Translations under genes and position numbers: made by a program
The notes under the pieces: generated by a model
What the model was told of the DNA's origin: nothing
What the model saw: only the letters and a program-made list of their open reading frames with translations
Databases searched by the model: none
Assembly: GCF_041435055.1 (NCBI RefSeq)
Contig: NZ_CP108003.1
Location: forward strand, 186,001 to 250,000
Length of the DNA: 64,000 nt
Reading direction: 5' to 3'
Source of the DNA: Streptomyces sp. NBC_00341
Lineage (GTDB): Bacteria > Actinomycetota > Actinomycetes > Streptomycetales > Streptomycetaceae
Shown here: piece by piece, positions 13,195 through 45,536 of the stretch
How the letters are laid out: each line of letters starts with the position of its first letter
Numbering within the stretch: the stretch's first letter is position 1

Positions 13195-13216
13195 CCGGCG
13201 CGGACCACCCCTGGCC

Positions 13217-13252: not shown

Positions 13253-13265
13253 CGGGGTGCCCGGG

Positions 13266-15833: not shown

Positions 15834-15960
15834 GGCCCGACCGTAGTTCAGCGGGAGGCGTTGCAGGCCGGCTCCCGCACGGGTCAGGGACAAGCACCAG
15901 AATGAGCAGCCGTGGCTTGACCGGACCGGGATGCGGCCTTCACCGGTGGTGTGCGGGGAG

Positions 15961-28126: not shown

Positions 28127-29323
28127 TTACAGCAGGGCCTCCAGCGCCTCTGCGGCGCGGGGCGCGCCTCCGGCCCGTTCCAGCACGGTGGCCATCCTTC
28201 CCACCCGTTCGCACATCACCGTGTCCGCCGCCGTCGTGCGCACGGCCTCAAGCAGCGTCTCCTCCGTGACCTCCGTCGGCAGCACAAGCGTGCCGAGGCC
28301 GAGGGCCGCCGCCCGGTTCGACAGCACCCGGGTCTCCGGCATCTGCGGGATCATGACCGGCGGCGTGCCCGCGTACAGGGACTCCATCAGGCTGCCGAGG
28401 CCGGCGGCGGTGACGAAGACGTCCGCCCTCCGTAGCGCCGCCAGCTGAGGGATCCAGGAGTGTGCCTCGACGTTGTCCGGCAGCGGGCCCAGGTCGGCGG
28501 GGTCCGAGCCGGCGCCGACGGTGATCACCGCATGCCAGGGCTTGCCCTCGAAGGCGCGCACACAGGTGTCGAAGAAGCGCGGCTGCTTGTTGTAGAGCGT
28601 GCCCATCGAGATCACGACAAGGGGCAGCCCGTCGGCGGGCGGAGTCCAGGTCTCCGCGGTGAGGTACCGCGGGGTCATGCAAGGGCCGACGAAGGCCGTT
28701 TCCTCACCGAAGGTCTCCCCGAACGGCTGGAATTCTCGCGGCACGTAGACCAGGCTGCGGTCGGCGCCCCAGCTCACCAGGGCGTCCGGGGCGATGTCGA
28801 TGCCCAGCTCCGTGGTGAACTGCCGCGCCCTGGTCAACAGTTCGACCACCGCCGGGTGGTCGCGTGTCACGCCGGCGTCGTCCGAGGCCGCGCGCACCTC
28901 CGAGTAGTGGGAGTTCGACGCCAGCGAGGGAGTCGACTGGACCGCGGGGCACCCCCACAGCTGTTCCAGGGCGCGGCCCGCAGGGGCGACGATCATGTCG
29001 TAGAGCACCAGGTCGGGCAGGTCGTCGGCGAACAGCCGCTGGGCGACGGGCACCAGCTCGATGCTCTCCTTGAGGAACAGCACCGCGGACCGCGCCAGCA
29101 TGTCCGGGGTCATCGTGTCGTACCGGTCGTGGCCCAGTACGTCATCCAGCAGGCCCTTGTGGACGAAGGGGGTGGCTCCGGTGGCGCGTACCGCGGCTTC
29201 GAAGGTCTGCGAGGTCAGGAAGCTCACCCGGTGTCCGCGCCGGACCAGTTCCTCTGTGACGGCCAGGGCGGGCCGCATGTGCCCGTGAGCCGGGATGCTG
29301 AGAACGAGAACGTGGCTGCTCAT
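28127..29323 (-). CDS. Macrolide-type glycosyltransferase (MGT/OleD-like)
   Basis: A 398-residue GT-B enzyme, with VLVLSIPAHGHMRPALAV at the start and FVTAAGLGSLMESLYAGTPPVM at the donor site. In VTAAGLGS the usual HxGxxS His is replaced (TAAG instead of HAGG/HHGG), which may alter donor binding. The start at ATG 29323 is chosen because AAGGA lies six bases upstream. It follows the methyltransferase gene after 58 bp and is probably the last gene of the long minus-strand run. Confidence 0.82.
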   Translation of the reverse strand: MSSHVLVLSIPAHGHMRPALAVTEELVRRGHRVSFLTSQTFEAAVRATGATPFVHKGLLDDVLGHDRYDTMTPDMLARSAVLFLKESIELVPVAQRLFADDLPDLVLYDMIVAPAGRALEQLWGCPAVQSTPSLASNSHYSEVRAASDDAGVTRDHPAVVELLTRARQFTTELGIDIAPDALVSWGADRSLVYVPREFQPFGETFGEETAFVGPCMTPRYLTAETWTPPADGLPLVVISMGTLYNKQPRFFDTCVRAFEGKPWHAVITVGAGSDPADLGPLPDNVEAHSWIPQLAALRRADVFVTAAGLGSLMESLYAGTPPVMIPQMPETRVLSNRAAALGLGTLVLPTEVTEETLLEAVRTTAADTVMCERVGRMATVLERAGGAPRAAEALEALL

Positions 29324-29381: not shown

Positions 29382-30245
29382 TCACCGCAGCGCGGTCAGC
29401 AGGCCGACGCGGCCGGTGCCGGGCAGCGCCGGGTCGAAGGCCGGCGGAACCGGACGGCCGTGGCGTGCGGCGAGGTCGGGGAGCGGCTCCGCGTCGGCCG
29501 TCCATCCGTGGTCGGCGAGCCAGTCGGCGGCCGGGCGCGTCATCCGGTTCTTCCAGAACGCGGACAGCCGGTCGACGACGCCGCCGGGCGCGTCGGCGGC
29601 GGCGTGCCTGGCCCGGTCGGACTCGACCATTGCCCGGGTCACGTGCTCCACCGCCAGGTGGCTGCCCGGCGCCGAGAGTGCGCCGATCCGGCCGAGCAGG
29701 CTGTCCCCCTCCTGCTCGGTGAGGTACACGAGAACGCCCTCGACCAGCCACGCCGTCGGCTCGGTGGGGCAGAAGCCCCGCGCGGCCAGCTGCGCGGGCC
29801 AGTCCGCCCGCAGGTCCGCCGCGATCACCTCGCGTCGGCAGGCGGGCGTCTCACCGCGCAGCACGTCCTCCTTGAAGGCGATCAGCTCGGGCTGGTCGAG
29901 CTCGAACAGCCGGCAGCCCTCCGGCCACCGCAGCCGGAAGGCACGTGTGTCCAACCCCGCCGCCAGCAGCACCACCTGGCGGCAGCCCGCCTCGGCAGCG
30001 TGATGGAGATAGTCGTCGAAGTACCGGGTGCGCAAGGCGAAGTAGTCGCCCATGGCGGCGGTGAAGCGCTCACCCGAACCGGCGTTCCACTCCGCCTGCT
30101 GTTCGGTGCCCGCCGCGTCGAGGAGGCGCTTGGCCAAGAGGTCCTCGAACAGCCGGTCGTGCCGCTCGGTCTCGGCCCATCGGGCCATACCCACCACCAG
30201 CGCGGTGGTGCTGACCCCCGCGAGGGGCTTCGGTCGGTCTGTCAT
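29382..30245 (-). CDS. SAM-dependent methyltransferase, leucine-carboxyl-methyltransferase family
   Basis: A 287-residue protein of the LCMT-like/TIGR00027 group. The N-terminal STTALVVGMARW, the motif VVLLAAGLDTRAFRL with WPEG, FELDQPELI and WLVEGVLVYL are characteristic. Members of this group methylate carboxylates or hydroxyls in many polyketide clusters. Its ATG overlaps the amidohydrolase stop as ATGA at 30242-30245, so translation is coupled. The substrate is unknown. Confidence 0.82.
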   Translation of the reverse strand: MTDRPKPLAGVSTTALVVGMARWAETERHDRLFEDLLAKRLLDAAGTEQQAEWNAGSGERFTAAMGDYFALRTRYFDDYLHHAAEAGCRQVVLLAAGLDTRAFRLRWPEGCRLFELDQPELIAFKEDVLRGETPACRREVIAADLRADWPAQLAARGFCPTEPTAWLVEGVLVYLTEQEGDSLLGRIGALSAPGSHLAVEHVTRAMVESDRARHAAADAPGGVVDRLSAFWKNRMTRPAADWLADHGWTADAEPLPDLAARHGRPVPPAFDPALPGTGRVGLLTALR

Positions 30246-31558
30246 GGCGTCCCGTCTCTCGTGTCCTCGGTCGCGCTCCCGCTCGCCGGAGCGACGCGAG
30301 CGCGGTATGCCTCACGGTCGAAGCGGACGCCGCCGCGCCACACCGCCTCGATCGAGCGGGTGTGCGTGATGTCCTCGGCAGGGTTGCCGGCGACCAGCAG
30401 CAGGTCCGCGCGGCGGCCCGGCGCGATCAGCCCGCGGTCGTGCAGACCGAAGCGGGCGGCCGGCACCGAGGTCGCCGCGGCGAGCGCCTGTGCCGGGGTC
30501 AGCCCGGCGTCGACCAGCAGGGCCAGCTCGGCGTGCAGGCTCGCTCCGTGCACCACCGGGCAGGCCCGGTCGGGGCGTTGGTTGGCGTCGCTGCCCGCCA
30601 GTACCGGCACGCCCGCCCGGTGGAGGGCGGCCACGCTCGCCAGCGCGTGGCCGAAGCGGTGCTCGGGCCGGGGATGGTCCGCGCACAGCCCCTCGCGGCC
30701 CGAGGCGATGGCCCGCCGGGCGTGCTCGGGCAGGTGACCGGCGATCCGTGGGTCCTCCGCCAGCGTGCGGCCCACCCGGGCCGCGGGAGAGGGCGGCGGA
30801 GCGGACATCTCGAGCATCGTCAGGGTGGGCAGGACGGCATGCCCGCCGGCCGCGAGACGGCCGGCGAACTCGTCGTCCAGGGGCGCTTCCAACGGCAGGT
30901 GCGTCAGGACGTCCACCCCGCTGTCCAGCGCGAGCCGGGCGGACCACAGGGCCGAGACGTGCGCGACGGTCACCAGGCCGCGCCGCCGGGCCGCCTCGAC
31001 GAGTGCCGTCACGGTCGCGCGGTCCAGCGCGGGCAGCGACATGCCGTGGTTGGCGCCGTCGTCCACCATGATCTTGAGGAAGTGTGCGCCCTCCTCGTGC
31101 CGGGCGGCCACGAACGCATCCGCCTGCCCGGGGCCGGCGACCGTCGGCAGCCGTGGCATGCCCACCGCCGGGTGCCCGCCGGGCGCGCTCGCCAGCCATC
31201 CGGCGCTGCGCAGATCGGCCACGTCGTCGCGGCCGGCGGCCAGCTCGCACAGGGCCCGGGTGGCGTCAGCCGGGCCCATGAACATGTCGAGCTCGGTGGT
31301 CACCCCGAAGGCCAGGGCCAGTTCGAGATTGTCCGGCACGCCGAAGACGTGGGTGTGCGCATCGATCAGCCCCGGCAGCAGGGTCAGGCCGCTCCCGTCG
31401 ACCATCTGTGTGCCCTTCCCGGGCCGCGGCCGGGGACCCGGTCCGACGGTGACGTCTGTGACGACGCCGTCGGTGAACTCCACCGAACCGGTCCCCGCCA
31501 CCGACTCCCCGTCGAAGACGCGTACGTCGTGGATGAAGGTCGCCCCCACCCGTCTCAC
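30242..31558 (-). CDS. Amidohydrolase-superfamily metal-dependent hydrolase
   Basis: A 438-residue cyclic amidohydrolase. GLIDAHTHVFG supplies the HxH metal ligands, FLKIMVDDG holds the possible carbamylated Lys, VAHVSALW and THLP the further His ligands, and VLAGSDAN the catalytic Asp. The GTG start at 31558 overlaps the UbiA stop as GTGA. It should hydrolyse a C-N or C-O bond of a ring or amide. No tell-tale substrate motif is present. A nitrogen-bearing intermediate would fit with the nitroreductase in the same operon. Confidence 0.8.
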   Translation of the reverse strand: MRRVGATFIHDVRVFDGESVAGTGSVEFTDGVVTDVTVGPGPRPRPGKGTQMVDGSGLTLLPGLIDAHTHVFGVPDNLELALAFGVTTELDMFMGPADATRALCELAAGRDDVADLRSAGWLASAPGGHPAVGMPRLPTVAGPGQADAFVAARHEEGAHFLKIMVDDGANHGMSLPALDRATVTALVEAARRRGLVTVAHVSALWSARLALDSGVDVLTHLPLEAPLDDEFAGRLAAGGHAVLPTLTMLEMSAPPPSPAARVGRTLAEDPRIAGHLPEHARRAIASGREGLCADHPRPEHRFGHALASVAALHRAGVPVLAGSDANQRPDRACPVVHGASLHAELALLVDAGLTPAQALAAATSVPAARFGLHDRGLIAPGRRADLLLVAGNPAEDITHTRSIEAVWRGGVRFDREAYRARVAPASGSATEDTRDGTP

Positions 31559-32460
31559 CGTCCGATCCCGGTCGCTACGGACCCGTAGAGGCACAGCAGG
31601 TTGAAACAGAGGACGAAGCCCATCGCGGGGAGGGTCAGCCCGTCCGGTCTGCGCCGCGCCAGGAAGCGCCAACCGCCGAACGCGGGAAGCAGCAGGCTCA
31701 GCGCGGGCAGCAGGCCCGCCCGCCCGAGCAGCAGCGGGGCGATCACCGCGGCGGCGCTCGCCAGGGCCAGGCTGACCGCAGCGCTGCCGCGCGCGCCGAA
31801 CACCTGTGAGTAGAGCCGCGCCCGTGGGTCGCTCTCGTGACTGGTCTTGCGCGCGACCTCGAACTGCAGGAAGACACAGGCGAACATGGCGAGCAGCGGC
31901 ACCGCGCGCAGATCCCCGCCGATCGCGCCGCTGGTCATCAGCGAGCCGTACAGGTAGACCGAGAGCAGGAGTTGCACCGGGTAGCCGGCCAGCAGGCCGG
32001 CCACCGGGTCGTCACCGAGCCGGGGCCAGCGGCGCTCCAGGCCGGTCAGGGCCACCGTATAGCCGAGGCCGAGCACGATCAGGACCGCCGACCAGCCCGA
32101 CACCGGCAGGTTGAGCGCCATCACGACGGCGGCGATCAGTCCCATCGCGCAGCGCAGCTCCGTCACCGAGATGGCGCCGGTCACCAGCGGGCGGTCCGGA
32201 TGATGCAGCCGGTCGTACTCCAGGTCCTTCTGCTCGTCCACCATCCGGGCGAACAGCAGGGCCAGCACCACGCTTGCCGCGCGCACCACCGTCGCCGGGC
32301 CGGGCCTCCAGTGCCCGGCCCCCGACAGTGCCTCGGCCGCCCCCTCCAGAGCCAGGGTCCACAGCACTCCGTAGGTGACGTAGACCTGCGGGCGGAACAT
32401 CCGCAGCACGAAATCGCCCAGCCGGGCCGGTGTGTGCCGGGCCGTCAGCGTCCCGCTCAT
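31555..32460 (-). CDS. UbiA-family membrane prenyltransferase-like protein
   Basis: A 301-residue polytopic membrane protein with about eight or nine hydrophobic segments. The first Asp-rich motif is VDEQKDLEYDRLHHPDRPL, matching DxxxDxxxD of UbiA enzymes; the second region is weaker (KTSHESDPRARLYS). UbiA proteins transfer prenyl groups to aromatic acceptors; MqnP does so with 1,4-dihydroxy-6-naphthoate. The ATG at 32460 overlaps the nitroreductase stop. The lack of a clean second DxxxD leaves open a non-prenyl donor. Confidence 0.78.
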   Translation of the reverse strand: MSGTLTARHTPARLGDFVLRMFRPQVYVTYGVLWTLALEGAAEALSGAGHWRPGPATVVRAASVVLALLFARMVDEQKDLEYDRLHHPDRPLVTGAISVTELRCAMGLIAAVVMALNLPVSGWSAVLIVLGLGYTVALTGLERRWPRLGDDPVAGLLAGYPVQLLLSVYLYGSLMTSGAIGGDLRAVPLLAMFACVFLQFEVARKTSHESDPRARLYSQVFGARGSAAVSLALASAAAVIAPLLLGRAGLLPALSLLLPAFGGWRFLARRRPDGLTLPAMGFVLCFNLLCLYGSVATGIGR

Positions 32461-33104
32461 CCCTGCCATCCGTTCCAGGAGACGACCTCGTCCAGTGGCT
32501 GCCGCGGCGGGCGACGGAAGTCGGGGCCGCCCGTGACATGCCCGACGGCCACCAGCGCCACCTGCGTGACCTCGTCCGCCGGAATGCCGAGCAGTTCCGC
32601 GACCTCTCGTTCGTGTGCCAGGTGCACCGTGGTCAGCGCGGTGCCCAGGCCACGGCTGCGCGCCGCCAGCATGAAGCTCCACAGCGCCGGGTAGACCGAG
32701 CCGAAGAAGGCGGACCGGCCGGCCGGCGGGGCGTCCGGCGCCAGCCGGCCCCGGGCGGCGGCCAGCACCAGCGCCGGCACCTCGTGCAGGTGATCGGCGA
32801 GATAGCGCACTCCGGCCACCGCCCGCTCGCTCATCGCGCCCGGTGGCTTCGCTGCCAGATAGGCGTCCGACGCGGACTTGTAGTACCGGGCGACGGCCGC
32901 CTTGGTCTCCTCGGCGTCGATCACCACGAACCGCCAGTCCTGGCGGTTGCCGCCGTTCGGTGCGTACTGGGCGATCCGCAGGCATTCGGCGATCAGCGGG
33001 CGGGCGACCGGACGCGACAGGTCGAGCCGGCGGCGCACGGTGGGCGTACGGGTCAGTATCGCGTCGACGTCGTGGACCGCCGGGGCGGCGTGGGTGCCGG
33101 TCAT
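32457..33104 (-). CDS. Nitroreductase-family FMN oxidoreductase
   Basis: A 215-residue protein with the nitroreductase N-terminal RRLDLSRPV pattern, the FMN-binding QYAPNGGNRQDWRFVV and the C-terminal GVAxG-like VALVAVGHV. It should use NAD(P)H and FMN to reduce or dehydrogenate a small substrate; the family includes azoline oxidases and flavin-dependent dehydrogenases as well as nitroreductases. Its ATG overlaps the AfsA-like stop as ATGA (33101-33104). Confidence 0.8.
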   Translation of the reverse strand: MTGTHAAPAVHDVDAILTRTPTVRRRLDLSRPVARPLIAECLRIAQYAPNGGNRQDWRFVVIDAEETKAAVARYYKSASDAYLAAKPPGAMSERAVAGVRYLADHLHEVPALVLAAARGRLAPDAPPAGRSAFFGSVYPALWSFMLAARSRGLGTALTTVHLAHEREVAELLGIPADEVTQVALVAVGHVTGGPDFRRPPRQPLDEVVSWNGWQG

Positions 33105-34090
33105 CCCGGTGTCCGCAGTCGCGGGGGCAGGGTCAGCCGCACCTCGCCCTCGGCGATCGGACGGCCCTGCTGCGTCAGAGTGCAGCGCAGCACGGCATCC
33201 GTCCCGTTGCCGCTGACCGGCAGGCTCTCGCAGGTGACGGGCAGGTCCAGTTCACCCATCGCGAGGAATCGGGCGCTCACCCCGGTCAGCACGGCCGCCG
33301 GCGAGTTCAGTGCGCCGGAGGCGACGGCGGTGGCGATGCCCAGCTGCCGGAACGCCTCAAGGGAGAGCATGCCGGGCACGTGGTCGAGGGGGTGGTCGAA
33401 GAGCACCGGGTGGGCGGTGTCGACGACGAGCGGGGCGGTCATGGCCCGGTCGGCGGCGCCCGGCATGAGCCTCGGTGCGCAGACCACCACGTTCGCCGGG
33501 TCCCGGCGGTCGACCAGCGCCGCGCCGATCGGCGGTGCCGGCGCGGGGCAGGCGGTGAACGCGGTCTGGGCGGACAGTCCGAGTGCCGCCCGCCCCTCGT
33601 CGCGCATCGCCTGCCAGTGCTCGCCCGACACCCACGACATGCTGCATTCCAGCGTTGCCGCCACCTGCTCGCCGATCAGCGCGCTGTAGCGGAGCCGCGC
33701 GCCCGTCACCCCCTCGCGACCACGGAAGCGGCGCAGGATCCGGCAGCGCAGTACCACCTCGGTGGGGGCGGCGCCCACCGCCAGAGCCGCCGGGTCGAGG
33801 TCCCGCAGCATGATCTCGCGCAGGATGAACTTCGTGCCGAACGGCATGTCGAACAGTTCGTGGCCCAGCATGATGAGTGTCTGCCGGGCGGCCTCCACCA
33901 GCACCATCGGGTCGTAGACGTCGCAGCAGCCCACCGTGTCCCGGTAGAAGGCGTGGGAGCGGGGGATCTGCACCCCGACGTCCAGGGTGTCCTCGTCCCG
34001 GCTGAGCGCGCCTGTGACGAGCACCTCCGTGAGACTCAACCGGTGAACGATCTCCCGGGGCACCGTGCGGCTGAACTCCACCGTGTCCAT
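33101..34090 (-). CDS. AfsA/ScbA-family enzyme (butyrolactone-synthase-like double hotdog)
   Basis: A 329-residue protein with two hotdog repeats. The first contains RSHAFYRDT, YDPMVLVEAARQT and FILREIMLRDL; the second contains HPVLFDHPLDHVPGMLSLEA. The DHPxDHVPGM and VEAARQ stretches are hallmarks of AfsA/ScbA/BarX, which join a beta-ketoacyl-ACP to dihydroxyacetone phosphate on the way to gamma-butyrolactones. A strong AAGGAGG lies before the ATG. No ArpA-type receptor gene lies nearby, and the neighbours are ACP, acyl ligase, reductase and phosphotransfer-type proteins. It may therefore make part of the product rather than a hormone. Confidence 0.85.
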   Translation of the reverse strand: MDTVEFSRTVPREIVHRLSLTEVLVTGALSRDEDTLDVGVQIPRSHAFYRDTVGCCDVYDPMVLVEAARQTLIMLGHELFDMPFGTKFILREIMLRDLDPAALAVGAAPTEVVLRCRILRRFRGREGVTGARLRYSALIGEQVAATLECSMSWVSGEHWQAMRDEGRAALGLSAQTAFTACPAPAPPIGAALVDRRDPANVVVCAPRLMPGAADRAMTAPLVVDTAHPVLFDHPLDHVPGMLSLEAFRQLGIATAVASGALNSPAAVLTGVSARFLAMGELDLPVTCESLPVSGNGTDAVLRCTLTQQGRPIAEGEVRLTLPPRLRTPG

Positions 34091-34105
34091 CGTGATTCCT
34101 CCTTG

Positions 34106-35107
34106 TCACCTGGCCGCGAGGCGGGCCAGGTGAAGTTGCCAGTCGGCTGAGCCGGGCCCGTCCAGCACCGGCGCCAGCCCCTGGTGCTTCATGGGCAGGA
34201 CGTGGGTACCGACGATCACCAGGTCCCACGGGTCGATCAGCAGGCCGTTTCGCCAGACGGCCTCCAGCAGTGGGCCGTGGCCCTGCGGGGTGCTCGCCGC
34301 CAGCCGGGCCGCGCGGAGTTCGTCGCGGACCGCCCCGGGGGGCATCGACGCCTCCGCCCGCTCCACCGCCAACCGGAGCCGGCCGGCGGCCGGCGCGAAC
34401 GTCAGTTCGCGCTCGGGCACTTCGGCGTGCAGCCGCGCGGCCAGTTCCAGGGCCCGCCCGGACTGGTCCGCGCCTTCCAGCGCACTGGCGTAGACCCGCT
34501 CCCGGGTCGCCGTGTCGAAGTGCACGCCCAGCTCGCGGGCCACGTCGGCCGGCTCGTCCGGGGTGTGCACCAGGTTGAGCAGGTAGCTGTAGCGACCGAT
34601 CTCGTAGCGCAGCTGGCCGGGGATCCTGGCCTTCGGATCGGTCGGGCCCTTGCGCTCGGTCACCACCACCGACGTCGGCGGTGCCCAGGCCTCCTCCGCC
34701 TCCGGCCGGACGACCAGGACCACCGAGTCGCACGAGTCCATGAACAGGTCGGCCAGCCGGCGGCGCTCCGGGGTCGCCAGGTTCCACTGGTAGTACCAGA
34801 GCGACCGCACGGCGGTCCGGGTCAGCCGGGTGCGTTCCGCGGCGACGATTCGCAGGCCGTTGCGGGCCAGCCAGTCGACGGTCGTCGGGATCTGCCGGCT
34901 GACGACCGCGTCCGGCTTGAGCAGCAGCGCGGCGTGCCGGTGCAGGAAGCCCTCCACGTCGGCGGTGAGCCCCGCGAGCTGTTCGACGCTCTCCAGGAAG
35001 TACGTGTCGGAGGCGAACAGGGTGCGCTTGCGGGGATCACAGCTGAGGGCCGGTGAGAGGTCCACGCCGGAGCGGCGGTCCTGCCGCGTCGTGTCGTCCG
35101 TGATCAT
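34106..35107 (-). CDS. Nucleoside-diphosphate-kinase-like protein with C-terminal extension
   Basis: A 333-residue protein whose first half looks like an NDK. ALLLKPDAV matches the MIKPDGV strand with its Lys, GPTDPKARIPGQLR matches the GATxPxxAxPGTIR nucleotide loop, and NLVHTPD matches NxxHGSD with the catalytic His retained. Real NDKs are about 135-150 aa; here a further stretch of about 170 residues ending WDLVIVGTHVLPMKHQG follows, which I do not recognise. It overlaps the upstream SDR stop (ATGA at 35104). Phosphotransfer through the His to or from a pathway intermediate is an inference. Confidence 0.7.
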   Translation of the reverse strand: MITDDTTRQDRRSGVDLSPALSCDPRKRTLFASDTYFLESVEQLAGLTADVEGFLHRHAALLLKPDAVVSRQIPTTVDWLARNGLRIVAAERTRLTRTAVRSLWYYQWNLATPERRRLADLFMDSCDSVVLVVRPEAEEAWAPPTSVVVTERKGPTDPKARIPGQLRYEIGRYSYLLNLVHTPDEPADVARELGVHFDTATRERVYASALEGADQSGRALELAARLHAEVPERELTFAPAAGRLRLAVERAEASMPPGAVRDELRAARLAASTPQGHGPLLEAVWRNGLLIDPWDLVIVGTHVLPMKHQGLAPVLDGPGSADWQLHLARLAAR

Positions 35108-36240
35108 CGGCCGGCTCCGTCCGGTTCGTCCGCGCCCGGCTCGCCGGAGAGCGGTGCGGTGAGGTCCAGCAGGGCCAGCACGTCCTGGGCGCCCGGCAGC
35201 GGTGCGCCGAGATAGCCGGTCTCCAGGCAGTGGTCGATCAGCCGGCGCAGGAAGTCCTGACCGCCGTCCGGGGTCCCCCGGCCGGTCAGCTCGGCCGTGT
35301 TGGAGGCGTCGAAGATCATCTGCCGCCGGAAGTAGCTCTCGTAGAGCGAGACGACCCGCTCGTAGTAGAGGCGCTCCCCGGGCGGCAGCCGCGAGGAGTC
35401 GAAGCTCGTCGGCGGTACGAACCTCGGCACGTGGAAGGAGGGGTACTCGGCCATCACGTCGGAGAAGTCCCGCAGGGTCAGCGGGGCGCCCACCGCGTGG
35501 AAGGTGCGGCCCTCCGCCTCCTCGAACCGTTCGGTGACCCGTGTGACGACGTCTGCCACATGGTCGACCGGGACCAGGTCGAGACGCGCCTCGTACTGGC
35601 CGGGTACGGACCGGACCTTGCCCTCGGTGGCCAGCTTGAGGACGACGTAGATGTTCTTGCGGTCGCGCACCGCGCCGGTGCGCTCGTCGCCGACGACGAT
35701 GCTGGGGCGGACGACCGCAGCCCGCACCCCGTCGGTCCGCGCCTTGTGCACCAGAGTCTCGGCCTTCAGTTTGCTGGCCTCGTAGGAGTTGGCCAGCCGC
35801 TGCCCCTCGTCCAGTTCGCACTCGCGGACCACGCCGTCGCGTTCTCCGCACACGTAGGCGGTACTCACGTGCACCAGAGCGGCGCCGGAAGCCCGGGCCA
35901 GCTCGATCACGTGGGCGGTGCCCTCCACGTTGACGGCCTGGTAGAGCTCGTCGGGCCGGCCGAAGTCGGTGACCGCCGCGCAGTGCACGATCCGGTCGAG
36001 CCCGCCGGCCGCCAGCGCCCGGTACGCGTCCCGCGACAGGCCCAGCCGGGGCCGGGTCACATCCCCGGGCAGCTGTTCGACGGCTCCGTCCGCCAGCGCG
36101 CTCCCGTCGTTGCGGACCACCTCCGTGGCCCGGTGCACCAACGCGGTCACCCGGTGGCCGGTCTCCGCGAGCCGGGCACAGACCTCCGCGCCGACCAGCC
36201 CGCTCGCCCCGGTCACCAGCACGTTCAAGGGCGTTGTCAT
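35104..36240 (-). CDS. Extended SDR, thioester-reductase-like (NAD_binding_4 type)
   Basis: A 378-residue NAD(P)-dependent protein with the Rossmann motif VTGASGLVGAEV, RIVHCAAVTDF, VHVSTAYVCGE and the catalytic YEASK. The long form and the STAYVCG pattern resemble carboxylic-acid/thioester reductase R domains and male-sterility-type fatty acyl reductases. Encoded directly after an ACP and downstream of an acyl-AMP ligase, it could reduce an ACP-bound acyl group to an aldehyde or alcohol. It overlaps both neighbours by 4 bases. Confidence 0.78.
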   Translation of the reverse strand: MTTPLNVLVTGASGLVGAEVCARLAETGHRVTALVHRATEVVRNDGSALADGAVEQLPGDVTRPRLGLSRDAYRALAAGGLDRIVHCAAVTDFGRPDELYQAVNVEGTAHVIELARASGAALVHVSTAYVCGERDGVVRECELDEGQRLANSYEASKLKAETLVHKARTDGVRAAVVRPSIVVGDERTGAVRDRKNIYVVLKLATEGKVRSVPGQYEARLDLVPVDHVADVVTRVTERFEEAEGRTFHAVGAPLTLRDFSDVMAEYPSFHVPRFVPPTSFDSSRLPPGERLYYERVVSLYESYFRRQMIFDASNTAELTGRGTPDGGQDFLRRLIDHCLETGYLGAPLPGAQDVLALLDLTAPLSGEPGADEPDGAGR

Positions 36241-36512
36241 TTCGCTGCCTCCCTCAGCCGGGCCGCGGAGACCAGGCGCACCACGTCGCCGAGAGTGCCG
36301 GCGGTGGCCGTCTCATGCGCGCCCAACTCCGGTAGCGCGAAGCCCTGTTCCAGTGCCAGCGTCAGTTCGATCAGCCGTAGCGAGTCGTAGCCGAGGTCGG
36401 CCGCCAACGCGGTCTCGTCGGTCAGTTCCGTGTCCGGCACGGGCGCCATGGCGCCCACGATCGCGTACACGGTGGTCCGGGTGTCGTCCTCGACCGGGAC
36501 AGGTGGGCTCAT
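36237..36512 (-). CDS. Discrete acyl carrier protein
   Basis: A 91-residue ACP with ADLGYDSLRLIEL, in which Ser of DSL is the phosphopantetheine site. It is acidic, as expected. ATG 36512 is the conservative start; a TTG at 36524 sits only four bases after GGAGG and could be used instead. It lies between the nucleotidyltransferase and SDR genes and is the obvious carrier for the acid activated by the ligase at 38193. Confidence 0.85.
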   Translation of the reverse strand: MSPPVPVEDDTRTTVYAIVGAMAPVPDTELTDETALAADLGYDSLRLIELTLALEQGFALPELGAHETATAGTLGDVVRLVSAARLREAAK

Positions 36513-36540
36513 GGGTGACGTCAACGTTCCTCCAGCAGAT

Positions 36541-38196
36541 TCAGGACGTGGCTGCATGGGGCTGCGCGCCTCCGCTGGACAGCAGATCGCTCGCCTCGTC
36601 GATGGGCAGGTCAGCGTTGAGGTGTGCGCCGAGGCGCAGCCAGTCGTAGCCGATCTCCAGCGTCCGCCGCCATGCGTCCGACGAGTCGAACGAGGACGGG
36701 AACCGGTCCGCGCCCGTGGCGCCGCGCACCAGGGCCACGAAGGCGTCCAACTCGGCCAGCGCGGTGGCGCCTTCGGTGTCGGAGCCGACCGTCAGCCTCT
36801 CCAGCCGCTCGGCCCGCTCCCGTATCCCGTCCGTGCGTGCGCCGGCCGGCAGCATCGCCAGACGGCGCACGACCTCGGCGTCCGGCGGCAGCGGGTTGAC
36901 CGCGTACGCGCTGAGCAGGCCGCGCACCGCGAACCGCAGTATCCGGCGGGCGCTGAGCTGCGCGACGCCCCACTGTTCGCGGTCCAGAGCACCCACCAGG
37001 TCCTCGCGGGCATTCTCCACCAGCACGTTGGACCACACCAGGGTCATCGCGGCCGCGGAGAACCGGCGGGCCGGCACCGGTACGAGGCCGATCGCCTCCG
37101 GGTCCTCGATCGCGGCCCCGCCCACCCCGATGACGGGCAGTGCCGTGCTCGGCGGCGGTGTGATCGCGCCGGAGGGCGCGGCCAGCGGCATGGTCGCCAC
37201 GATCGGCCCCTCACCGCGCCACGCCGCCCGCACCAGGCCGTACCGCAGGAACTCGGCGATCATCGGCCCGGCGTTCGGCGTCCCGGCCGCCTCCGCCGTG
37301 GCCAGCACCTGTTCCAGGGAACGGCCGAAGACCAGCGAGCGCCACGCCCGCGCTGTGCGGTGGCCGAGGACGAACACGTCCTGCCGTCCGCGCACCACGT
37401 GCACCCGCTCGCCGGTCTGCCAGGTGGTCACCGCGTCGGCGCGGGCCACGGTGATCCGCTCTCCGGTGTCCTCGACGCCGGAGATGCCGAGATCGACGGC
37501 GAGCCGGCGGCCCTCGTCCACGTAACCGGCCGCGTCCAGACCCGACACGTCCAGCGACGCCAGGGCGCGGAAGCGGCCGGACAACGGGTGGTCCCCGATC
37601 CGGTCCAGCTGCATGGGGAGCCACTTCGGCTCCAGGTAGGTCTCGCCGCGCGCTGCGGCCCACGACTTGACCGCCTGGAGCAGTCCCGCCTCCATCCATG
37701 CGGCGGCCTCCTGCGGCAGGCCCAGCCGCCGCAGCACCAGCGCATACCTCACGCAGTGCCGTGCCCGGTCCGCCCACCACCGGCCGGCCATGTCCGCGAA
37801 GTCATCCAGGGACATCAGCCCCTTCACCTTGGCCACCAGCTCCGGGTTGCGCAGCGGGAAGCTGCGCAGCAGACGCTGGCACCGGTTGAGCAGGTCCTCC
37901 ACCTGCGCCCCCGAGCCCTCGCGCACCGCGGTGGCCACCGCGGAGAACTGTTCCTCCAGCTGGCGTACCGAACGGGTCCTGACCTCGACCCGCCGCCCGT
38001 CGACGAAGAGCAGGGAGGGCATGGTCGGCAGGTCCGCGTCGACGTCGGCGATGAGCAGGAAGTCGATGTCGGACGACGAATTGCCGAACCCCTCGGCGAT
38101 CGAACCCTCCAGCACCACGGCGCAGCCGGCCGCGGAACGTATCTGCGGGAACGTCTTGTCGAGCAGGCTCTGCAGGTATTGCTCGCTGAGGATCAC
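36541..38196 (-). CDS. Pol-beta-type nucleotidyltransferase domain protein
   Basis: A 551-residue protein. Near the N-terminus LEGSIAEGFGNSSSDIDFLLI is the GSxxxG...SDxD signature of DNA-polymerase-beta-type nucleotidyltransferases, with RRVEVR supplying a possible third acidic ligand. The rest is a mostly helical domain of about 450 residues that I do not recognise. Relatives transfer AMP or other NMP groups to proteins, RNA or small molecules (aminoglycoside adenylyltransferases). The GTG start overlaps the acyl ligase stop (GTGA at 38193-38196). The substrate is unknown. Confidence 0.72.
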   Translation of the reverse strand: MILSEQYLQSLLDKTFPQIRSAAGCAVVLEGSIAEGFGNSSSDIDFLLIADVDADLPTMPSLLFVDGRRVEVRTRSVRQLEEQFSAVATAVREGSGAQVEDLLNRCQRLLRSFPLRNPELVAKVKGLMSLDDFADMAGRWWADRARHCVRYALVLRRLGLPQEAAAWMEAGLLQAVKSWAAARGETYLEPKWLPMQLDRIGDHPLSGRFRALASLDVSGLDAAGYVDEGRRLAVDLGISGVEDTGERITVARADAVTTWQTGERVHVVRGRQDVFVLGHRTARAWRSLVFGRSLEQVLATAEAAGTPNAGPMIAEFLRYGLVRAAWRGEGPIVATMPLAAPSGAITPPPSTALPVIGVGGAAIEDPEAIGLVPVPARRFSAAAMTLVWSNVLVENAREDLVGALDREQWGVAQLSARRILRFAVRGLLSAYAVNPLPPDAEVVRRLAMLPAGARTDGIRERAERLERLTVGSDTEGATALAELDAFVALVRGATGADRFPSSFDSSDAWRRTLEIGYDWLRLGAHLNADLPIDEASDLLSSGGAQPHAATS

Positions 38197-39911
38197 AGGG
38201 GTCTCCCGGTCGTGGTGGCGTCGGTCTCCAGGACACGTGAGTCCCGCAGCCGGCCGGCCCGCAGTTGTTCCCACATGTGCCGACGTCTCGGTTTGCCGCT
38301 GGACGTCCGGCTGATCAGCCCGCTGCGGCCGACGACGACCGTGACGGTGGTCTCGTCTCCCAGCGTGCCGCGCAACGCGGTGGTCGCCTTGCGCACCCAG
38401 CTGCCTTCGGGCCGCTCCACGAACAGCGTCACCGCGGTGCCGTCGGCGTTCCCGACGCCGACGACCGCGCACCTGTCCCGGGCGATGCCGGTCGCCGCGG
38501 CCACCCGCGCCTCCAGGTCCTCGACGTAGACGCTGCGCCCGTGTGCCTTGATGCTGTCGCCGGTCCGGCCGAGTACGAACAGCTCGCCGCGGTGCAGGAA
38601 CCCGGCGTCCCCGGTCCGCAGCGCGCCGTCGACGATGCGGGTGGAGCCGGTGCGGCCGGCGTGGTAGCCGTCGGTGACCGAGGGGCCGGCCACCGCGATC
38701 TCGCCGAGGTGACCGTTCGGCAGCGGCTTCCCGTCCTCGTCCAGCACGTTGACGTCCAGCCCGTCGGCGGGCGGCCCGCAGCCGATCATCCAGCCTGTGC
38801 CGGCATCGTCGGGGGAGGGGGCGGGACCGGCTCCGCCGGTGAATCCCCGCTCCGCTTCGACGGTCACGGGCCCGCCGAGGCGCAGGCCGCCCGTGTCCAC
38901 CCGCACGACCTTCAAGGGGGTCTGCCGGGAGCGTACGGTCACCGCCAGTGTCGCTTCCGCCAGGCCGTAGGACGGCAGGAAGACCGAGGAGGAGAAACCG
39001 GCGGGCGCGGCGAGCGCGGCGAATCGTTCCAGCACCCCTGGGGAGATGGGTTCGGCGCCGGTGATCGCGGTGCGCCACGCGGACAGGTCGAGGTCGCCGA
39101 GCCGCTTGCCCAGCCGCCGGACCGCGTACTCGAACGCGAAGGGCGGCGCGGCGGTGTGCGCGGCGAAGGCGAACCGGCTCAGCCAGCGGACCGGGTCGCG
39201 GATGAACTGTTCGGGCCGCATCAGCCAGAGATCCTCCTGCCTGCTGACAGGCGCCAGCAGGCAGCCGATGAGGCCCATGTCGTGGTGGAGCGGCAGCCAG
39301 GAAGCGGTGCTCTCGCCCGCCCGCCAGTCGAGCCGGTCATGGATCATCGACAGATTGGCCGCCAGATTGGCCCACCCGACCCGCACCCCGCGCGGACGGC
39401 TGCTGGAGCCGGAGGTGAACTGCAGCAGCGCCAGCCCGCTCGGAAGGTGTACCGGTGCTTCCTCGCCGTCGTCGTGCCAGACCCACGGCTCACGCTCCGA
39501 GCCGGCGGCGGCGACCACCCGTGCGGCGACGGGGGCCAGTTCGGCGGAGGTAATGGTGAGCGCGGCTCCGGTCTGCCCGAGGATTCCGGCCACGTGCTCC
39601 ACGTACTCCGCCTCCGGCGTGTACGACGGCGGCGGAAGAAGGCACAGGGTGGCGCCGGCGGCCCAGACGCCGAAGAGCGAGGACAGGCAGGGGAAGCCGG
39701 TCGGCAGCAGAAGGCAGACCACGTCGCCGGGGCCGACTCCGGACGCGGCCAGCGACCCGGCCACCCGCCGCGCCGAAGCGGCGATCTCACGGTAGGAGTG
39801 GAAGGTCCAGCCGCCCCGGTCGTCCGCAAGGTGGATGCCGCGGTCGGTTCCGGCCGTGAGGCCGCCGGTGTGCGGCGGATCCGTCAGCCAGCCGAGCAGG
39901 TCGTCATTCAC
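38193..39911 (-). CDS. Fatty-acyl-AMP ligase-like adenylating enzyme (FAAL)
   Basis: A 572-residue acyl-adenylating enzyme with the P-loop LLQFTSGSSSRPRGV, WLPLHHDMGLIG, PSYGLAEATLAV and GRTGDSIKAHGRSVYVEDLE. The HHDMGLIG and AEATLAV forms are typical of FAALs, which make acyl-AMP and pass the acyl group to an ACP rather than to CoA. The partner ACP is two genes downstream. The GTG at 39911 overlaps the end of the PEP-enzyme gene by 8 bases. Confidence 0.85.
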   Translation of the reverse strand: MNDDLLGWLTDPPHTGGLTAGTDRGIHLADDRGGWTFHSYREIAASARRVAGSLAASGVGPGDVVCLLLPTGFPCLSSLFGVWAAGATLCLLPPPSYTPEAEYVEHVAGILGQTGAALTITSAELAPVAARVVAAAGSEREPWVWHDDGEEAPVHLPSGLALLQFTSGSSSRPRGVRVGWANLAANLSMIHDRLDWRAGESTASWLPLHHDMGLIGCLLAPVSRQEDLWLMRPEQFIRDPVRWLSRFAFAAHTAAPPFAFEYAVRRLGKRLGDLDLSAWRTAITGAEPISPGVLERFAALAAPAGFSSSVFLPSYGLAEATLAVTVRSRQTPLKVVRVDTGGLRLGGPVTVEAERGFTGGAGPAPSPDDAGTGWMIGCGPPADGLDVNVLDEDGKPLPNGHLGEIAVAGPSVTDGYHAGRTGSTRIVDGALRTGDAGFLHRGELFVLGRTGDSIKAHGRSVYVEDLEARVAAATGIARDRCAVVGVGNADGTAVTLFVERPEGSWVRKATTALRGTLGDETTVTVVVGRSGLISRTSSGKPRRRHMWEQLRAGRLRDSRVLETDATTTGRPL

Positions 39912-42669
39912 TCTTCGCCCCTCCCGCGCTTCCGGCGAGGACGGGCACGGTGGTCATGCCCGTGTCGGGAGCCGTGTCCTGGTCCGTGGCCGGGTTCGGC
40001 TCGTCGTCCAGGACCGTGATCGTCCCGGTGCCACCGTCCACCCGCACCCGTGCGCCGGTCCTCAATTCGGCCACCGCGCCCCTGACCTGGACCACCGTCG
40101 GGATGCCGAGCTCCCGGGCCACGATCGCCACATGCGTCAGCGGGCTGCCGCGCTCGATGACCAGGGCGGCGGACGAGGGCAGTGCGGCCACCCAGCCGGG
40201 GTCGGTGCGGTAGGTCACCAGGACGCCACCGGACACGTCGACCGGGGTGTCCGTGACGACGGCCCGTGCCTCCACCACTCCGGGGCAGGACGGCGTGCCG
40301 CGCAACTCTCGGACGCCGGTGCGCGCCACCGCGCCCGATACGAAGCCGGCTCGCTCCAGATTGCCCCGCCAGTAGGGCGCCGAGCGGGTGGTGAACCGGG
40401 ACGGCGCGGACAACTGCTCGTCCTCGGCCCGCTGCCGCTTGCGCAGCTCCACCAGGTCCCGCAGGCCGGTGTGACCGGTCGTTCCTTCGTAGGCGCCGTG
40501 CAGTTCGTCGAGGTAGAGGAAGAAAACGTCGTTCCAGTGGTCGATCGCCCCGATCCGGGCGAGGTCGCGGCCCATGGCGCGCAGCATCCGCTTCGCCGAG
40601 CCGAACGCGCGGGTGCGGCAGAATCTGAGCTGTTCGCGGTTGTACAGCGAACTCTGCGCCTTGCGGCGGACGATGTCGTAGACGAGCCTGCGTGGGCCGC
40701 GCAGGTGCGCGTCCAGGTAGGCGTCGACGTCTCCGCCGGGGCCCGCTCCCACCTCGGGCAGTGCGGTGCGCAGCAGGGCGAACAGCGTGGAGGGGTCTTC
40801 CCGCAGGTCCGGTACCTCCAGCTTGAGTTCGTCGAGGCTGCGGTAGCCGTACGCGTCCACGTACGCGTCCACCGAGGCGAGGAACCCCGTGTGGCCGGCG
40901 GCACGCAACGCCTCGTAGGTCTCCTCGGCCGGTGTCTCCCTGACCAGGCGGTCGAGTTCGGTGTCCTTCCGCACGGCGGCCGCCAGCCGGGCCAGTGCGT
41001 GGGCCGGCTCGATGGACTCCACCTGCGGGCCGGGACTGGCGGCGCTCCAGGTCAGCCACTCGGGGGCGTCCGGCAGCCAGCGTCGGCCGAGCAGCGCGAG
41101 CCCGCCCAACGACCACAGGATCGCCGCGTCGAGCGTCTGCATCGGACCCCACTTCTCCAGCAGGTCCTTCTCCAGTGCGCGGAAACGCCCATGGACGTCC
41201 TGTCCGTCCATCGCGTCGTAGTCGACGTTGTCGAACTCCTGGTACGCCTCATAGAAATAGGCCATGAAGCGCTTGACCGACCTGTTCATGGTCAGGAACC
41301 GCCGGACGAATGCGCCCGCCGTCCTGGCCCTGGTCAGCCGACCGCGCAGCGAGGGCGAGAAGGTATACGGGTAGATCGCCGACGCGGTCTCGTCGTCGAT
41401 TTCTTCCTCGACGCCGATGGCCAGCTCAAGCACTTTTCGATTGAGTTTGTAGAGAGGCGCGATCCGGACCATCCGGTACCAGTTGAAAAGGTTGTAGTAA
41501 ACACGCCCGTGGAAATATCCGAGCATATTGGGGGCCCACTCGAATATCTCGCGGAGTTCGGCCTGAGGAACGCTCAAGGATCGGGCGTAGTACTCGTACA
41601 CCTTGCCGTACACGTGGGCGGCGAAACTGAAGGTGAGGGGCGAGACGATTCCGGAGAAGCTTTCGACGATATTGGCGTTGTCCCATATGCGGATATCGGC
41701 GTCCGGGGCCGGTTCCGGGTTCCCTTCGGCAACCGGCAGGGCGGTGACCGGACGGGTCTGGAGTATCCACAGGGTTTCCCCGGAGAACGCCCACTCGATG
41801 TCCTGCGGGGACCCGAAGCACGCCGTGATCCTGACCCCCGCCTCATGCAGCCGGGCCAGCTCCGCGGGCTTCAGCGACAGCCGCTCCCGTTCCTGGGCCG
41901 GCACCGCGCTCACCAGGCAGCCCGAGCCCGCCGCGTCCGGGTGGTAGCGCTCCCCCTTCTCGCCGATCACCACGTCGTCCGTCGCGCCGGTGGCGGCGTC
42001 CAGCACCACGGTGTCGGCGTCGACCGCACCCGACACCAGCCCCTCGCCCAGCCCGTACACCGAGCTGACCACGTACTGGCCCCGGTCTCCGCTCACAGGA
42101 TTCGCGGTGAACAGAACGCCACTGCGCTCGGCGTCCACCATCTCCTGTACGACGACGGCCATCTCCGCGTCGCGCAGCGGCAGCCCGTGACGCAGCCGGT
42201 AGTGCAGCGACCGCTCGGAGAACGCCGACGCCCAGCACCGCCGCACGTGGTCCTCGACCTCCGCGAGCCCTCGGACGTTCAGGAAGGTGTCGAACTGCCC
42301 CGCGAAGGAGAGGCGTGCCCCGTCCTCCTCGATGCCGGAGGAGCGCACCGCGACCGCGCCGCCCCCTGCCCGGCGATAGGCCTCCTCGATCACCGCGGCC
42401 GCCCGCTCGTCCAGCCGGCCCGAGCCGATGAGCTCGGCCAACTGTTCCGCGATCCGTCCGGCATTGTGAACAGTGGCTGTGGAGAGCAGCTCATCGATCC
42501 GCCCGGACATATCGAGGGCGGTAACGAATTTCCGGAACACATCGACGCCCACCACGGCCCACCGCGGGACGTCGAGCCCGTGAACGGAAAGATCATATAG
42601 ATTCCTCCCCTTGCCGCCCGCCGCGCGTGCGACCTCTTCCAGCGAACTTCCAGCGAAAATGGTGCGCAT
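39904..42669 (-). CDS. PEP-utilising phosphotransferase (PEP synthase/rifampin phosphotransferase superfamily)
   Basis: A 921-residue three-part enzyme. An N-terminal ATP-grasp domain (GGKGRNLYDLS, AVRSSGIEEDG, GVLFTANPVSGDRG, WILQTRPVT) occupies about residues 1-330. A middle region of about 450 residues follows. The C-terminal swivelling phospho-His domain has RGSPLTHVAIVARELGIPTVV, with His846 (codon 40132-40134). PEP synthase makes PEP; rifampin phosphotransferase uses the same layout to phosphorylate a drug. The divergent middle region favours a special substrate, so phosphorylation of a pathway intermediate or of the product is likely. It opens the minus-strand operon behind AGGGG. Confidence 0.82.
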   Translation of the reverse strand: MRTIFAGSSLEEVARAAGGKGRNLYDLSVHGLDVPRWAVVGVDVFRKFVTALDMSGRIDELLSTATVHNAGRIAEQLAELIGSGRLDERAAAVIEEAYRRAGGGAVAVRSSGIEEDGARLSFAGQFDTFLNVRGLAEVEDHVRRCWASAFSERSLHYRLRHGLPLRDAEMAVVVQEMVDAERSGVLFTANPVSGDRGQYVVSSVYGLGEGLVSGAVDADTVVLDAATGATDDVVIGEKGERYHPDAAGSGCLVSAVPAQERERLSLKPAELARLHEAGVRITACFGSPQDIEWAFSGETLWILQTRPVTALPVAEGNPEPAPDADIRIWDNANIVESFSGIVSPLTFSFAAHVYGKVYEYYARSLSVPQAELREIFEWAPNMLGYFHGRVYYNLFNWYRMVRIAPLYKLNRKVLELAIGVEEEIDDETASAIYPYTFSPSLRGRLTRARTAGAFVRRFLTMNRSVKRFMAYFYEAYQEFDNVDYDAMDGQDVHGRFRALEKDLLEKWGPMQTLDAAILWSLGGLALLGRRWLPDAPEWLTWSAASPGPQVESIEPAHALARLAAAVRKDTELDRLVRETPAEETYEALRAAGHTGFLASVDAYVDAYGYRSLDELKLEVPDLREDPSTLFALLRTALPEVGAGPGGDVDAYLDAHLRGPRRLVYDIVRRKAQSSLYNREQLRFCRTRAFGSAKRMLRAMGRDLARIGAIDHWNDVFFLYLDELHGAYEGTTGHTGLRDLVELRKRQRAEDEQLSAPSRFTTRSAPYWRGNLERAGFVSGAVARTGVRELRGTPSCPGVVEARAVVTDTPVDVSGGVLVTYRTDPGWVAALPSSAALVIERGSPLTHVAIVARELGIPTVVQVRGAVAELRTGARVRVDGGTGTITVLDDEPNPATDQDTAPDTGMTTVPVLAGSAGGAKSE

Positions 42670-42987
42670 CGAACCCCTAGGTCTCTGGCGCTACGTGCGG
42701 GAAAACCCATCTGTCTGGGCGGCCAAAAGTGCACACTAGTCGCAGAGAAGGCACCTCTGCCCCCCAGATATCCACTCCAATGGTTTCCCTAGTACTCGCC
42801 GATTGACCCGGCGCCGGACCAGCGGGTTGCCTCTACGGTTTGATTGTCGTCAGGCCTCCTTCGGGTAATGCATCGAGTCTCCTTCGGATCTCGAACGGGT
42901 CTCAAGGGTTTCACGACTGAGGAACTCGGAGCAGGCAACGGCAGAAGTAATATTCGCGCAGACGCTGGAATACGGAGAACAAAGACC
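42670..42987. promoter_or_regulatory. Divergent control region between the PEP-enzyme operon and the P450 gene
   Basis: 318 bases without a gene, visibly poorer in G+C than its surroundings. It holds TTTCCCTAG (42784-42792), which read on the minus strand is CTAGGGAAA, a PAS-LuxR-type half-site. A GATATC lies at 42767-42772 on the side facing the minus-strand operon, and a TACGGT -10-like hexamer at 42834-42839 faces the P450. No convincing -35 boxes are seen, which suits activator-dependent promoters. Confidence 0.4.
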
Positions 42988-44476: not shown

Positions 44477-45514
44477 ATGAGGTACGAGAACGTATACATC
44501 CAGGGCCTCGGTGTGAAGCTGGGCCGTCTGCAGTCCGTCGAGGAAGCCATCGAACTCGGCTTGTGCCACCCCGAGGCGGCCGCCATGACCGAGCAGCGCT
44601 CGGTGTCGGTGTCCGCCGTCGCCGGGCCGGACCTTGCCATCGAGGCGGGCCGCGATGCCCTGGCCGCCGCGCGGGCCACTGCGCCCGGCGGCACCCTCGC
44701 CATCGACCTGCATCTACACGTCGCCACGTACTTCCAGGGCGTGGACCTGTGGTCCGCTCCCTGCTACGTACTCAACCATCTGGACGGGCCCGGCCCACGG
44801 GTGTCCGCACAGTTCTCCGCCATGTCCAACGGCTGTGTCGCCGCGCTGGAAGTTGCCGCGAGCGTGCTCAACGGCAGGCCCGACGTGGAGACCGCCCTGA
44901 TCACCACGGGCGACCGGTTCGGCGAGCCCGGCGTCCCGCACTGGAGCGTGGACGACGACATGGCGTTGGGCGACGCGGGCAGCGCCGTCGTGCTCGGCGT
45001 CGCGCCCGGCGTCGCCCGCCTCGTCTCGACCGCCTCCTACTGCGACCCCACGCTCGAACCGCTGCACCGGGGCACCGAGGAGTTCCACCGGGCCAGCCGC
45101 GCCGCCCAGGTGCCCATCGACCTGATCACCCGCCGGAAGGACTACTTCGCCCGGCACGACGCTGCGGAGTTCATCCGCCGCAACGAATTCGGCATGCGCG
45201 AGGCCGTCAAGCGCGCCCTGGGCGATGCCGGGCTCGACATGGCGGACATGGCGAAGGTCCTGGTGCCGTTCTTCGGCCGCGGTCTCACGCGCAACACCTG
45301 CCTCAAACCGCTGGGCATCACGGAGGACCGCACCCTCACCGACTGGGGGCTGTCCCTGGGACACCTGAGCGGCAGCGACCAGTTCGTGGGCCTGCACCGA
45401 CTGGTCGAAACCGGTGCGGTCGCGCCCGGCGACCACGTGTTGCTGTTCGGCGTGGGCAGCGGGTTCACCTGGACCACCGCCGTCGTGCAGATCACCGGGG
45501 CCGAGGCCCGATAG
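44477..45514 (+). CDS. KASIII-like acyltransferase (CerJ/ChlB3 type)
   Basis: A 345-residue thiolase-fold protein with the active-site Cys in MSNGCVAALEVA (Cys120, codon 44834). The FabH His-Asn pair is changed: VPFFGRG stands where HQAN would be, and SLGHLSGSDQ where GNTSAAS would be. The GHxGxxDQ form is seen in KASIII-like enzymes that move an acyl group to a sugar, alcohol or ACP (CerJ, ChlB3) instead of making a C-C bond. It follows the P450 by 67 bases on the same strand and is next to a discrete acyltransferase. It may transfer the acid made by PKS2. Confidence 0.8.
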   Translation: MRYENVYIQGLGVKLGRLQSVEEAIELGLCHPEAAAMTEQRSVSVSAVAGPDLAIEAGRDALAAARATAPGGTLAIDLHLHVATYFQGVDLWSAPCYVLNHLDGPGPRVSAQFSAMSNGCVAALEVAASVLNGRPDVETALITTGDRFGEPGVPHWSVDDDMALGDAGSAVVLGVAPGVARLVSTASYCDPTLEPLHRGTEEFHRASRAAQVPIDLITRRKDYFARHDAAEFIRRNEFGMREAVKRALGDAGLDMADMAKVLVPFFGRGLTRNTCLKPLGITEDRTLTDWGLSLGHLSGSDQFVGLHRLVETGAVAPGDHVLLFGVGSGFTWTTAVVQITGAEAR

Positions 45515-45536
45515 CCGATGTCCCGGGCCCCTCGCC

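What the first reader, a model, noticed from the sequence alone, without database searches (positions are those of the whole stretch)
29382..42669. Tightly coupled operon joining AfsA-type, FAAL/ACP/reductase and three phospho- or nucleotidyl-transfer proteins
Eleven minus-strand genes run with mostly 4-8 base overlaps: PEP phosphotransferase, FAAL, pol-beta nucleotidyltransferase, ACP, SDR, NDK-like, AfsA-like, nitroreductase, UbiA, amidohydrolase, methyltransferase. Known parts suggest an acid is adenylated, loaded on the ACP and reduced, and that an AfsA-type step joins an acyl chain to a phosphorylated C3 unit. Three phosphate or nucleotide-handling proteins in one operon is not a layout I recognise from butyrolactone, furan or butenolide pathways. 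It could build a prenylated, phosphorylated or nucleotidylated butyrolactone-like moiety that is either part of the glycosylated product or a new signal.
Basis: partly seen in the sequence, partly recalled or inferred. Interest (0 to 1): 0.85.

Follow-up and report, generated by a model that had tools for sequence, protein, structure and literature searches.

The report
Salinipostin-like phosphotriester gene cluster, decorated variant
The gene block is a Streptomyces relative of the known operon that makes salinipostins (butyrolactones carrying an unusual phosphate triester), with extra tailoring genes, so the pathway type is known but this decorated version and how its phosphate enzymes work are not.

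Summary
In detail: eleven tightly coupled minus-strand genes at 29382-42669, with the named enzyme families. The claim of an unknown layout does not. Eight of the eleven (PEP-type phosphotransferase, FAAL, nucleotidyltransferase NT, ACP, SDR, NDK-like kinase, AfsA, UbiA) match eight of nine genes of a Salinispora oceanensis operon that fits the printed size of spt, the salinipostin cluster. Its luciferase-like flavoprotein is replaced here by a nitroreductase-family one. Added are an amidohydrolase and a methyltransferase, always found together (13 of 50 loci), a divergent P450 and sometimes a glycosyltransferase. The core PEP+NT+SDR+NDK+AfsA+UbiA is complete in 45 of 50 NT loci, and the catalytic residues checked in PEP, NT and NDK are invariant. 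Best explanation: a salinipostin/cyclipostin-type enol-phosphotriester pathway, decorated. New here: FAAL and ACP come and go as a pair, and two AfsA-free relatives keep PEP, FAAL, NT, ACP, SDR and a divergent UbiA, suggesting a portable alkyl-phosphate module separate from AfsA/NDK/flavoprotein. Product and step order are inferred, not shown.

The parts
39904..42669 (-). PEP-synthase-type phosphotransferase, 921 aa (ATP-grasp + mobile His domain; no pyruvate-barrel hit in Pfam; RedH/PigC/rifampin phosphotransferase are relatives)
   Evidence: His846 in 54 of 54 loci
38193..39911 (-). fatty acyl-AMP ligase (FAAL), 572 aa
   Evidence: occurs with the ACP in 21 of 50 loci (20 strong + L014 in pieces)
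36541..38196 (-). small-molecule nucleotidyltransferase, 551 aa: ANT/KNTase-like N-domain, HEPN-like C-domain
   Evidence: D43, D45, E71 in 54 of 54
36237..36557 (-). acyl carrier protein, 106 aa (start uncertain), DSL Ser59
35104..36240 (-). thioester-reductase/fatty-acyl-reductase-like SDR, 378 aa
   Evidence: Y153/K157 in 53 of 53
34106..35107 (-). NDK-like kinase, 333 aa, with extra helical C-terminal part
   Evidence: H181 and K64 in 49 of 49
33101..34090 (-). AfsA-type butyrolactone synthase, 329 aa, two AfsA hotdog domains
32457..33104 (-). nitroreductase-family flavoprotein, 215 aa, in place of the luciferase-like flavoprotein of the Salinispora operon; putative butenolide reductase
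31555..32460 (-). UbiA-family membrane transferase, 301 aa
   Evidence: both tested Asp of DExxD (E there in 47 of 49) and E, R, K of the EFARK motif in 49 of 49
30242..31549 (-). amidohydrolase, 435 aa; accessory, found with the methyltransferase in the same 13 loci
29382..30245 (-). LCM-type (carboxyl-type) SAM methyltransferase, 287 aa; accessory
28127..29323 (-). MGT-type glycosyltransferase, likely twelfth gene (start uncertain); homologue in 5 of 13 AMH+MT loci
43042..44409 (+). divergent cytochrome P450, adjacent in 11 of 11 window-type loci L009-L019 (start uncertain)
42670..43041 (.). divergent intergenic region, presumed to hold the promoters (not tested)
   Evidence: sequence

Best explanation
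The block is a salinipostin (spt)-like operon that builds a gamma-butyrolactone bearing an alkylated cyclic enol phosphate (phosphotriester), with extra tailoring. Inferred route: FAAL and ACP load a fatty acid and the SDR reduces it to the alcohol. The PEP-type enzyme phosphorylates the alcohol through its mobile histidine, and the nucleotidyltransferase activates the phosphate. AfsA joins a beta-ketoacyl chain to dihydroxyacetone phosphate, and the nitroreductase-type flavoprotein reduces the butenolide phosphate. The NDK-like kinase raises the butyrolactone phosphate to an activated form, and the membrane UbiA-type protein joins the alkyl unit to it, the enol closing the ring. The amidohydrolase opens an ester/lactone or amide, the methyltransferase caps the carboxylate, and the P450 and glycosyltransferase add further changes. 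Shown: homology, synteny, conserved catalytic residues, co-occurrence. Inferred: every chemical step and the product.
For: Salinispora operon L046: PEP-FAAL-NT-ACP-SDR-NDK-UbiA-flavoprotein-AfsA, bases 5608-16765 = 11.2 kb, nine genes. PMC7888443 lists spt (butyrolactone, salinipostin) of S. tropica as RS20900-RS20940, 11.1 kb (passage). The 5.4 Mb S. oceanensis sequence searched holds one AfsA open frame, inside this operon. Identities of window proteins to L046, best segment: PEP 56, FAAL 49, NT 50, ACP 52, SDR 54, NDK 39, UbiA 40, AfsA 31%. Core complete in 45 of 50 loci. Catalytic residues invariant. Salinipostins, cyclipostins and cyclophostin are bicyclic enol phosphates with a suspected common origin with A-factor (PMC6681047, passages and section 4 part 1).
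Against: No product is known here for this cluster or for its Streptomyces relatives. AfsA is only 31% identical to the Salinispora one; the flavoprotein is of another family and gene order differs. FAAL+ACP are absent from 29 of 50 loci while PEP and NT stay in all 29 and SDR in 28, so the alcohol cannot always be made by a FAAL/ACP in the locus. Six window-type loci lack the nitroreductase. UbiA enzymes normally use allylic diphosphates (recalled), which a saturated alkyl chain is not. Step order rests on inference.
Confidence: 0.68

Rival explanations
1. The cluster mainly makes a plain A-factor-type butyrolactone signal; the phosphate enzymes are regulatory or make a minor product.
For: AfsA scores as a ScbA/BarX-type equivalog; from recall, the spt cluster is said to make simple butyrolactones (Sal-GBLs) too.
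Against: PEP, NT, NDK and UbiA are present in all 45 AfsA-containing loci, and the catalytic residues of PEP, NT and NDK are invariant where aligned; plain signals need none of them (recalled A-factor pathway).
Confidence: 0.15
2. The block makes a side unit of the neighbouring glycosylated polyketide (PKS 20019-28082, sugar genes 3931-13194).
For: Proximity; a glycosyltransferase directly follows the operon.
Against: Relatives keep the operon with different flanking genes; a homologous glycosyltransferase travels with the operon itself in 5 of 13 AMH+MT loci.
Confidence: 0.07
3. The nucleotidyltransferase acts on the butyrolactone phosphate, not on the alkyl phosphate: adenylylation makes the phosphorus electrophilic for ring closure. 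(A variant of the best explanation, not exclusive of it.)
For: It is present in the FAAL/ACP-less clusters (by construction, since loci were found through it) and its model aligns with small-molecule adenylyltransferases.
Against: It is kept with PEP, FAAL, ACP, SDR and a divergent UbiA in two loci with no AfsA (L049, L051).
Confidence: 0.35

Closest known systems
spt (salinipostin) operon of Salinispora (L046, S. oceanensis; PMC7888443 lists spt for S. tropica)
   Same: eight of nine gene families, shared order PEP-FAAL-NT-ACP-SDR-NDK, one tight operon
   Different: nitroreductase instead of luciferase-like flavoprotein; AfsA before, not after, UbiA; added amidohydrolase, methyltransferase, P450, glycosyltransferase
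Cyclophostin / cyclipostins of Streptomyces (PMC6681047)
   Same: expected bicyclic enol-phosphate product class (inference)
   Different: no gene cluster for them seen in the papers listed (capped lists), so identity cannot be tested
A-factor / ScbA-type butyrolactone pathways
   Same: AfsA family protein over the NCBIfam cut-off
   Different: those have no PEP, NT, NDK, UbiA, FAAL genes (recalled)
RedH / PigC / rifampin phosphotransferase
   Same: family matches over most of the length or the ATP-grasp part; shared ATP-grasp + mobile His design (their architecture recalled)
   Different: scores far under their cut-offs; different substrate expected

Membership tests
spt-like butyrolactone-phosphotriester cluster (broad class) | AfsA-type synthase in the operon | tested here: met
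   PF03756 155.7 bits; NF041195 219.2 against cut-off 200
spt-like butyrolactone-phosphotriester cluster (broad class) | PEP-type enzyme, NT, SDR, NDK, UbiA next to AfsA | tested here: met
spt-like butyrolactone-phosphotriester cluster (broad class) | FAAL and ACP between PEP and SDR | tested here: met
   lacking in 29 of 50 relatives, so optional in the class
spt-like butyrolactone-phosphotriester cluster (broad class) | phosphotriester product | not testable with these tools
   needs chemistry
salinipostin cluster proper (Salinispora spt) | luciferase-like flavoprotein (PF00296) in the operon | tested here: not met
   found in 4 of 50 loci, L046 included; the window operon's flavoprotein is PF00881 and no block protein matched PF00296
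salinipostin cluster proper (Salinispora spt) | gene order with AfsA last | tested here: not met
   AfsA lies between NDK and NR here
genuine PEP synthase | C-terminal PEP/pyruvate-binding barrel | tested here: not met
   Pfam finds PPDK_N and PEP-utilizers only, at E<=1e-3, though NF004881, named PEP synthase, is over its cut-off
NDK | catalytic His and KPD motif | tested here: met

The most novel reading that the evidence does not exclude
The cluster family contains a portable alkyl-phosphate module (PEP-type kinase, NT, SDR, FAAL, ACP, UbiA) in which a UbiA-fold membrane enzyme transfers a nucleotide-activated saturated alkyl (phosphate) group. It pairs with AfsA here and with other partners elsewhere (L049, L051). 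The window lineage makes a ring-opened, methylated and sometimes glycosylated phosphotriester.
Probability: 0.22. Interest if true: 0.68.

Novelty: new variant of a known kind. Interest (0 to 1): 0.42.

Why it matters
How bacteria build the salinipostin/cyclipostin phosphotriester, a serine-hydrolase-inhibiting warhead (PMC6681047 passages), is to my knowledge unsettled (recall; no mechanism seen in the rows listed, and the two key papers are not held). The comparison splits the pathway into an alkyl-phosphate module and a butyrolactone module and gives natural experiments: clusters without FAAL/ACP, without the flavoprotein, and without AfsA. These tell which enzyme may belong to which step and make the open question testable enzyme by enzyme. 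It also shows a decorated lineage with a fixed amidohydrolase-methyltransferase pair.

Tried and rejected
Rejected: a novel layout (eight genes match spt); a mosaic without co-occurrence (45 of 50 loci complete); a true PEP synthase (no barrel domain); degenerate NDK or NT (catalytic residues invariant); UbiA absent from L049/L051 (the ~285 aa membrane protein there, 0 Pfam families, aligns to the UbiA profile: hhalign probability 91.5, E 8.5e-7).

Led nowhere: Creamer 2021 and Kudo 2020 are not held; no paper holds 'DUF6001'; no cluster paper for cyclophostin/cyclipostins among the rows listed (40 of 1,236; 0; 8). In the plasmid collection 17 records match; the ten listed cover only 81 bases each. 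Foldseek on the NT model found nothing at E<=0.001 (best 1.2e-3). In one search I used a wrong frame for the Salinispora luciferase-like protein; one search uses the right one. At the loose bit cut-off, FAAL is also counted in L018 and L026 and ACP in L018. One search shows L026's is a 26% hit far from the operon, while L018's are short stretches inside it (46 residues of the FAAL end, 28 of the ACP start), i.e. remnants. I use the stricter counts.

Full report
Observation. The eleven minus-strand genes are real and coupled: six 4-base overlaps, one of 8, one of 17 (ACP start uncertain), gaps of 5 and 15. A glycosyltransferase (28127-29323) follows after 58 bases and a P450 (43042-44409) is divergent from the first gene.

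Conservation. A homology search with the nucleotidyltransferase gave 215 proteins at E<=1e-3, of which 120 were listed; one with the NDK-like protein gave 158, 120 listed. A scan of named genomes with 17 NT relatives gave 80 pattern matches (possibly the cap), of which 50 loci were confirmed. All were found through NT, so NT is present by construction, and each locus reaches at most 10 kb either side. Counts over 50 loci: PEP 50, SDR 49, UbiA 47 (two of them the divergent form), NDK 45, AfsA 45; the six-gene core PEP+NT+SDR+NDK+AfsA+UbiA is complete in 45. The five misses are L040 and L058 (contig ends) and L049, L050, L051 (real). FAAL and ACP occur together in 21 of 50: 20 strong FAAL hits plus L014, whose FAAL is in pieces, and the same 21 loci for ACP. 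L018 keeps only 46 residues of the FAAL end and 28 of the ACP start in the expected places, so there the pair was lost secondarily. Amidohydrolase and methyltransferase occur in the same 13 of 50. GT occurs in 5 and the window-type P450 in 11, all inside those 13. Rhodococcus rhodnii L025 has core, FAAL, ACP, NR, GT, AMH, MT and a different P450 in one run. On an NT tree of 53 rows the AMH+MT pair sits in three places: the window clade (12 rows, 100/100), L029 and L025. L029 lies firmly in another clade; the fork that parts L025 from the window clade has only 87/85, so those two might be one origin. FAAL+ACP is missing within the window clade in L009/L018 and in L013. Of those six, four from another family were read at length (L070-L073), and all four carry the core with FAAL and ACP.

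Identity with spt. The Salinispora oceanensis locus L046 reads PEP, FAAL, NT, ACP, SDR, NDK, UbiA, luciferase-like flavoprotein, AfsA: nine genes, 11.2 kb. The 5.4 Mb of that organism searched hold one AfsA open frame (two domain hits), and it is this one; the search may have covered the 5.43 Mb scaffold only. PMC7888443 (passage seen) lists spt, butyrolactone, salinipostin, RS20900-RS20940, 11.1 kb for S. tropica, which is nine locus tags if numbered in steps of five. Gene names spt1-9 and the work of Kudo 2020 and Creamer 2021 are recalled; those papers are not held (the second seen only in reference lists).

Mechanism. The two AfsA-free loci L049 and L051 keep PEP, FAAL, NT, ACP, SDR and a divergent UbiA but no NDK, AfsA or flavoprotein match; L050 keeps FAAL, ACP, SDR and NT, with only a weak (33%) PEP match on the other strand. 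I infer an alkyl module (reduce acid to alcohol, phosphorylate, nucleotidylate, transfer by UbiA) and a butyrolactone module (AfsA, flavoprotein, NDK). This rests on two or three loci. Against it: in 29 of 50 loci FAAL/ACP are absent while PEP and NT remain in all and SDR in 28, so another acyl source, or another role for SDR, is needed; whether FAAL/ACP lie elsewhere in those genomes was not searched. The amidohydrolase-methyltransferase pair would fit opening an ester/lactone or amide and methylating the acid; this is a guess from families.

Verdict. The novelty claim is mostly refuted: this is a decorated new variant of salinipostin-type clusters. The comparative split into two modules is the part worth a specialist's time.

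Noticed in passing
own genome contig C2 (window = C2:186001-250000): C2 is 255,797 bases, holds none of the six 16S genes found and its two ends are a 763-base inverted repeat 97% identical: probably a linear plasmid, so the cluster is plasmid-borne.
   Followed up: partly
window 3931-28082: Neighbouring cluster: EryCIII-like glycosyltransferases, deoxysugar-type genes, FAD hydroxylases and a PKS with N-terminal acyl-ligase and C-terminal thioesterase.
   Followed up: partly
L049:3221-11710 and L051:3504-15252: Clusters with PEP, FAAL, NT, ACP, SDR and a divergent UbiA but no AfsA or NDK match; L051 also has acyl-CoA dehydrogenase, HAD hydrolase and MFS genes. Possibly a different alkyl-phosphate product.
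   Followed up: partly
L018:9864-10001 and L018:11640-11723: Short remnants of the FAAL end and ACP start in a locus that has otherwise lost both genes: a recent paired loss.
   Followed up: partly
window 36541-38196: The nucleotidyltransferase joins an ANT-like domain to a HEPN-like domain, a pairing that recalls MNT-HEPN pairs (recalled); role of HEPN here unknown.
   Followed up: partly
L010, L012, L014, L016, L017, L019: The S. violaceusniger-type loci lack the nitroreductase gene although the rest of the window-type operon is kept.
   Followed up: no
own genome: Eight AfsA domain hits that read as four genes: two on C1, two on C2 including this one.
   Followed up: no
L033 and L057: A second AfsA homologue (29-30% identical) lies a few genes downstream of the core operon.
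   Followed up: no
window 44477-46358: A KASIII-like gene and a malonyltransferase-like fragment beside the P450; among the loci fetched the KASIII hit recurs only in L009 at about 30%.
   Followed up: no
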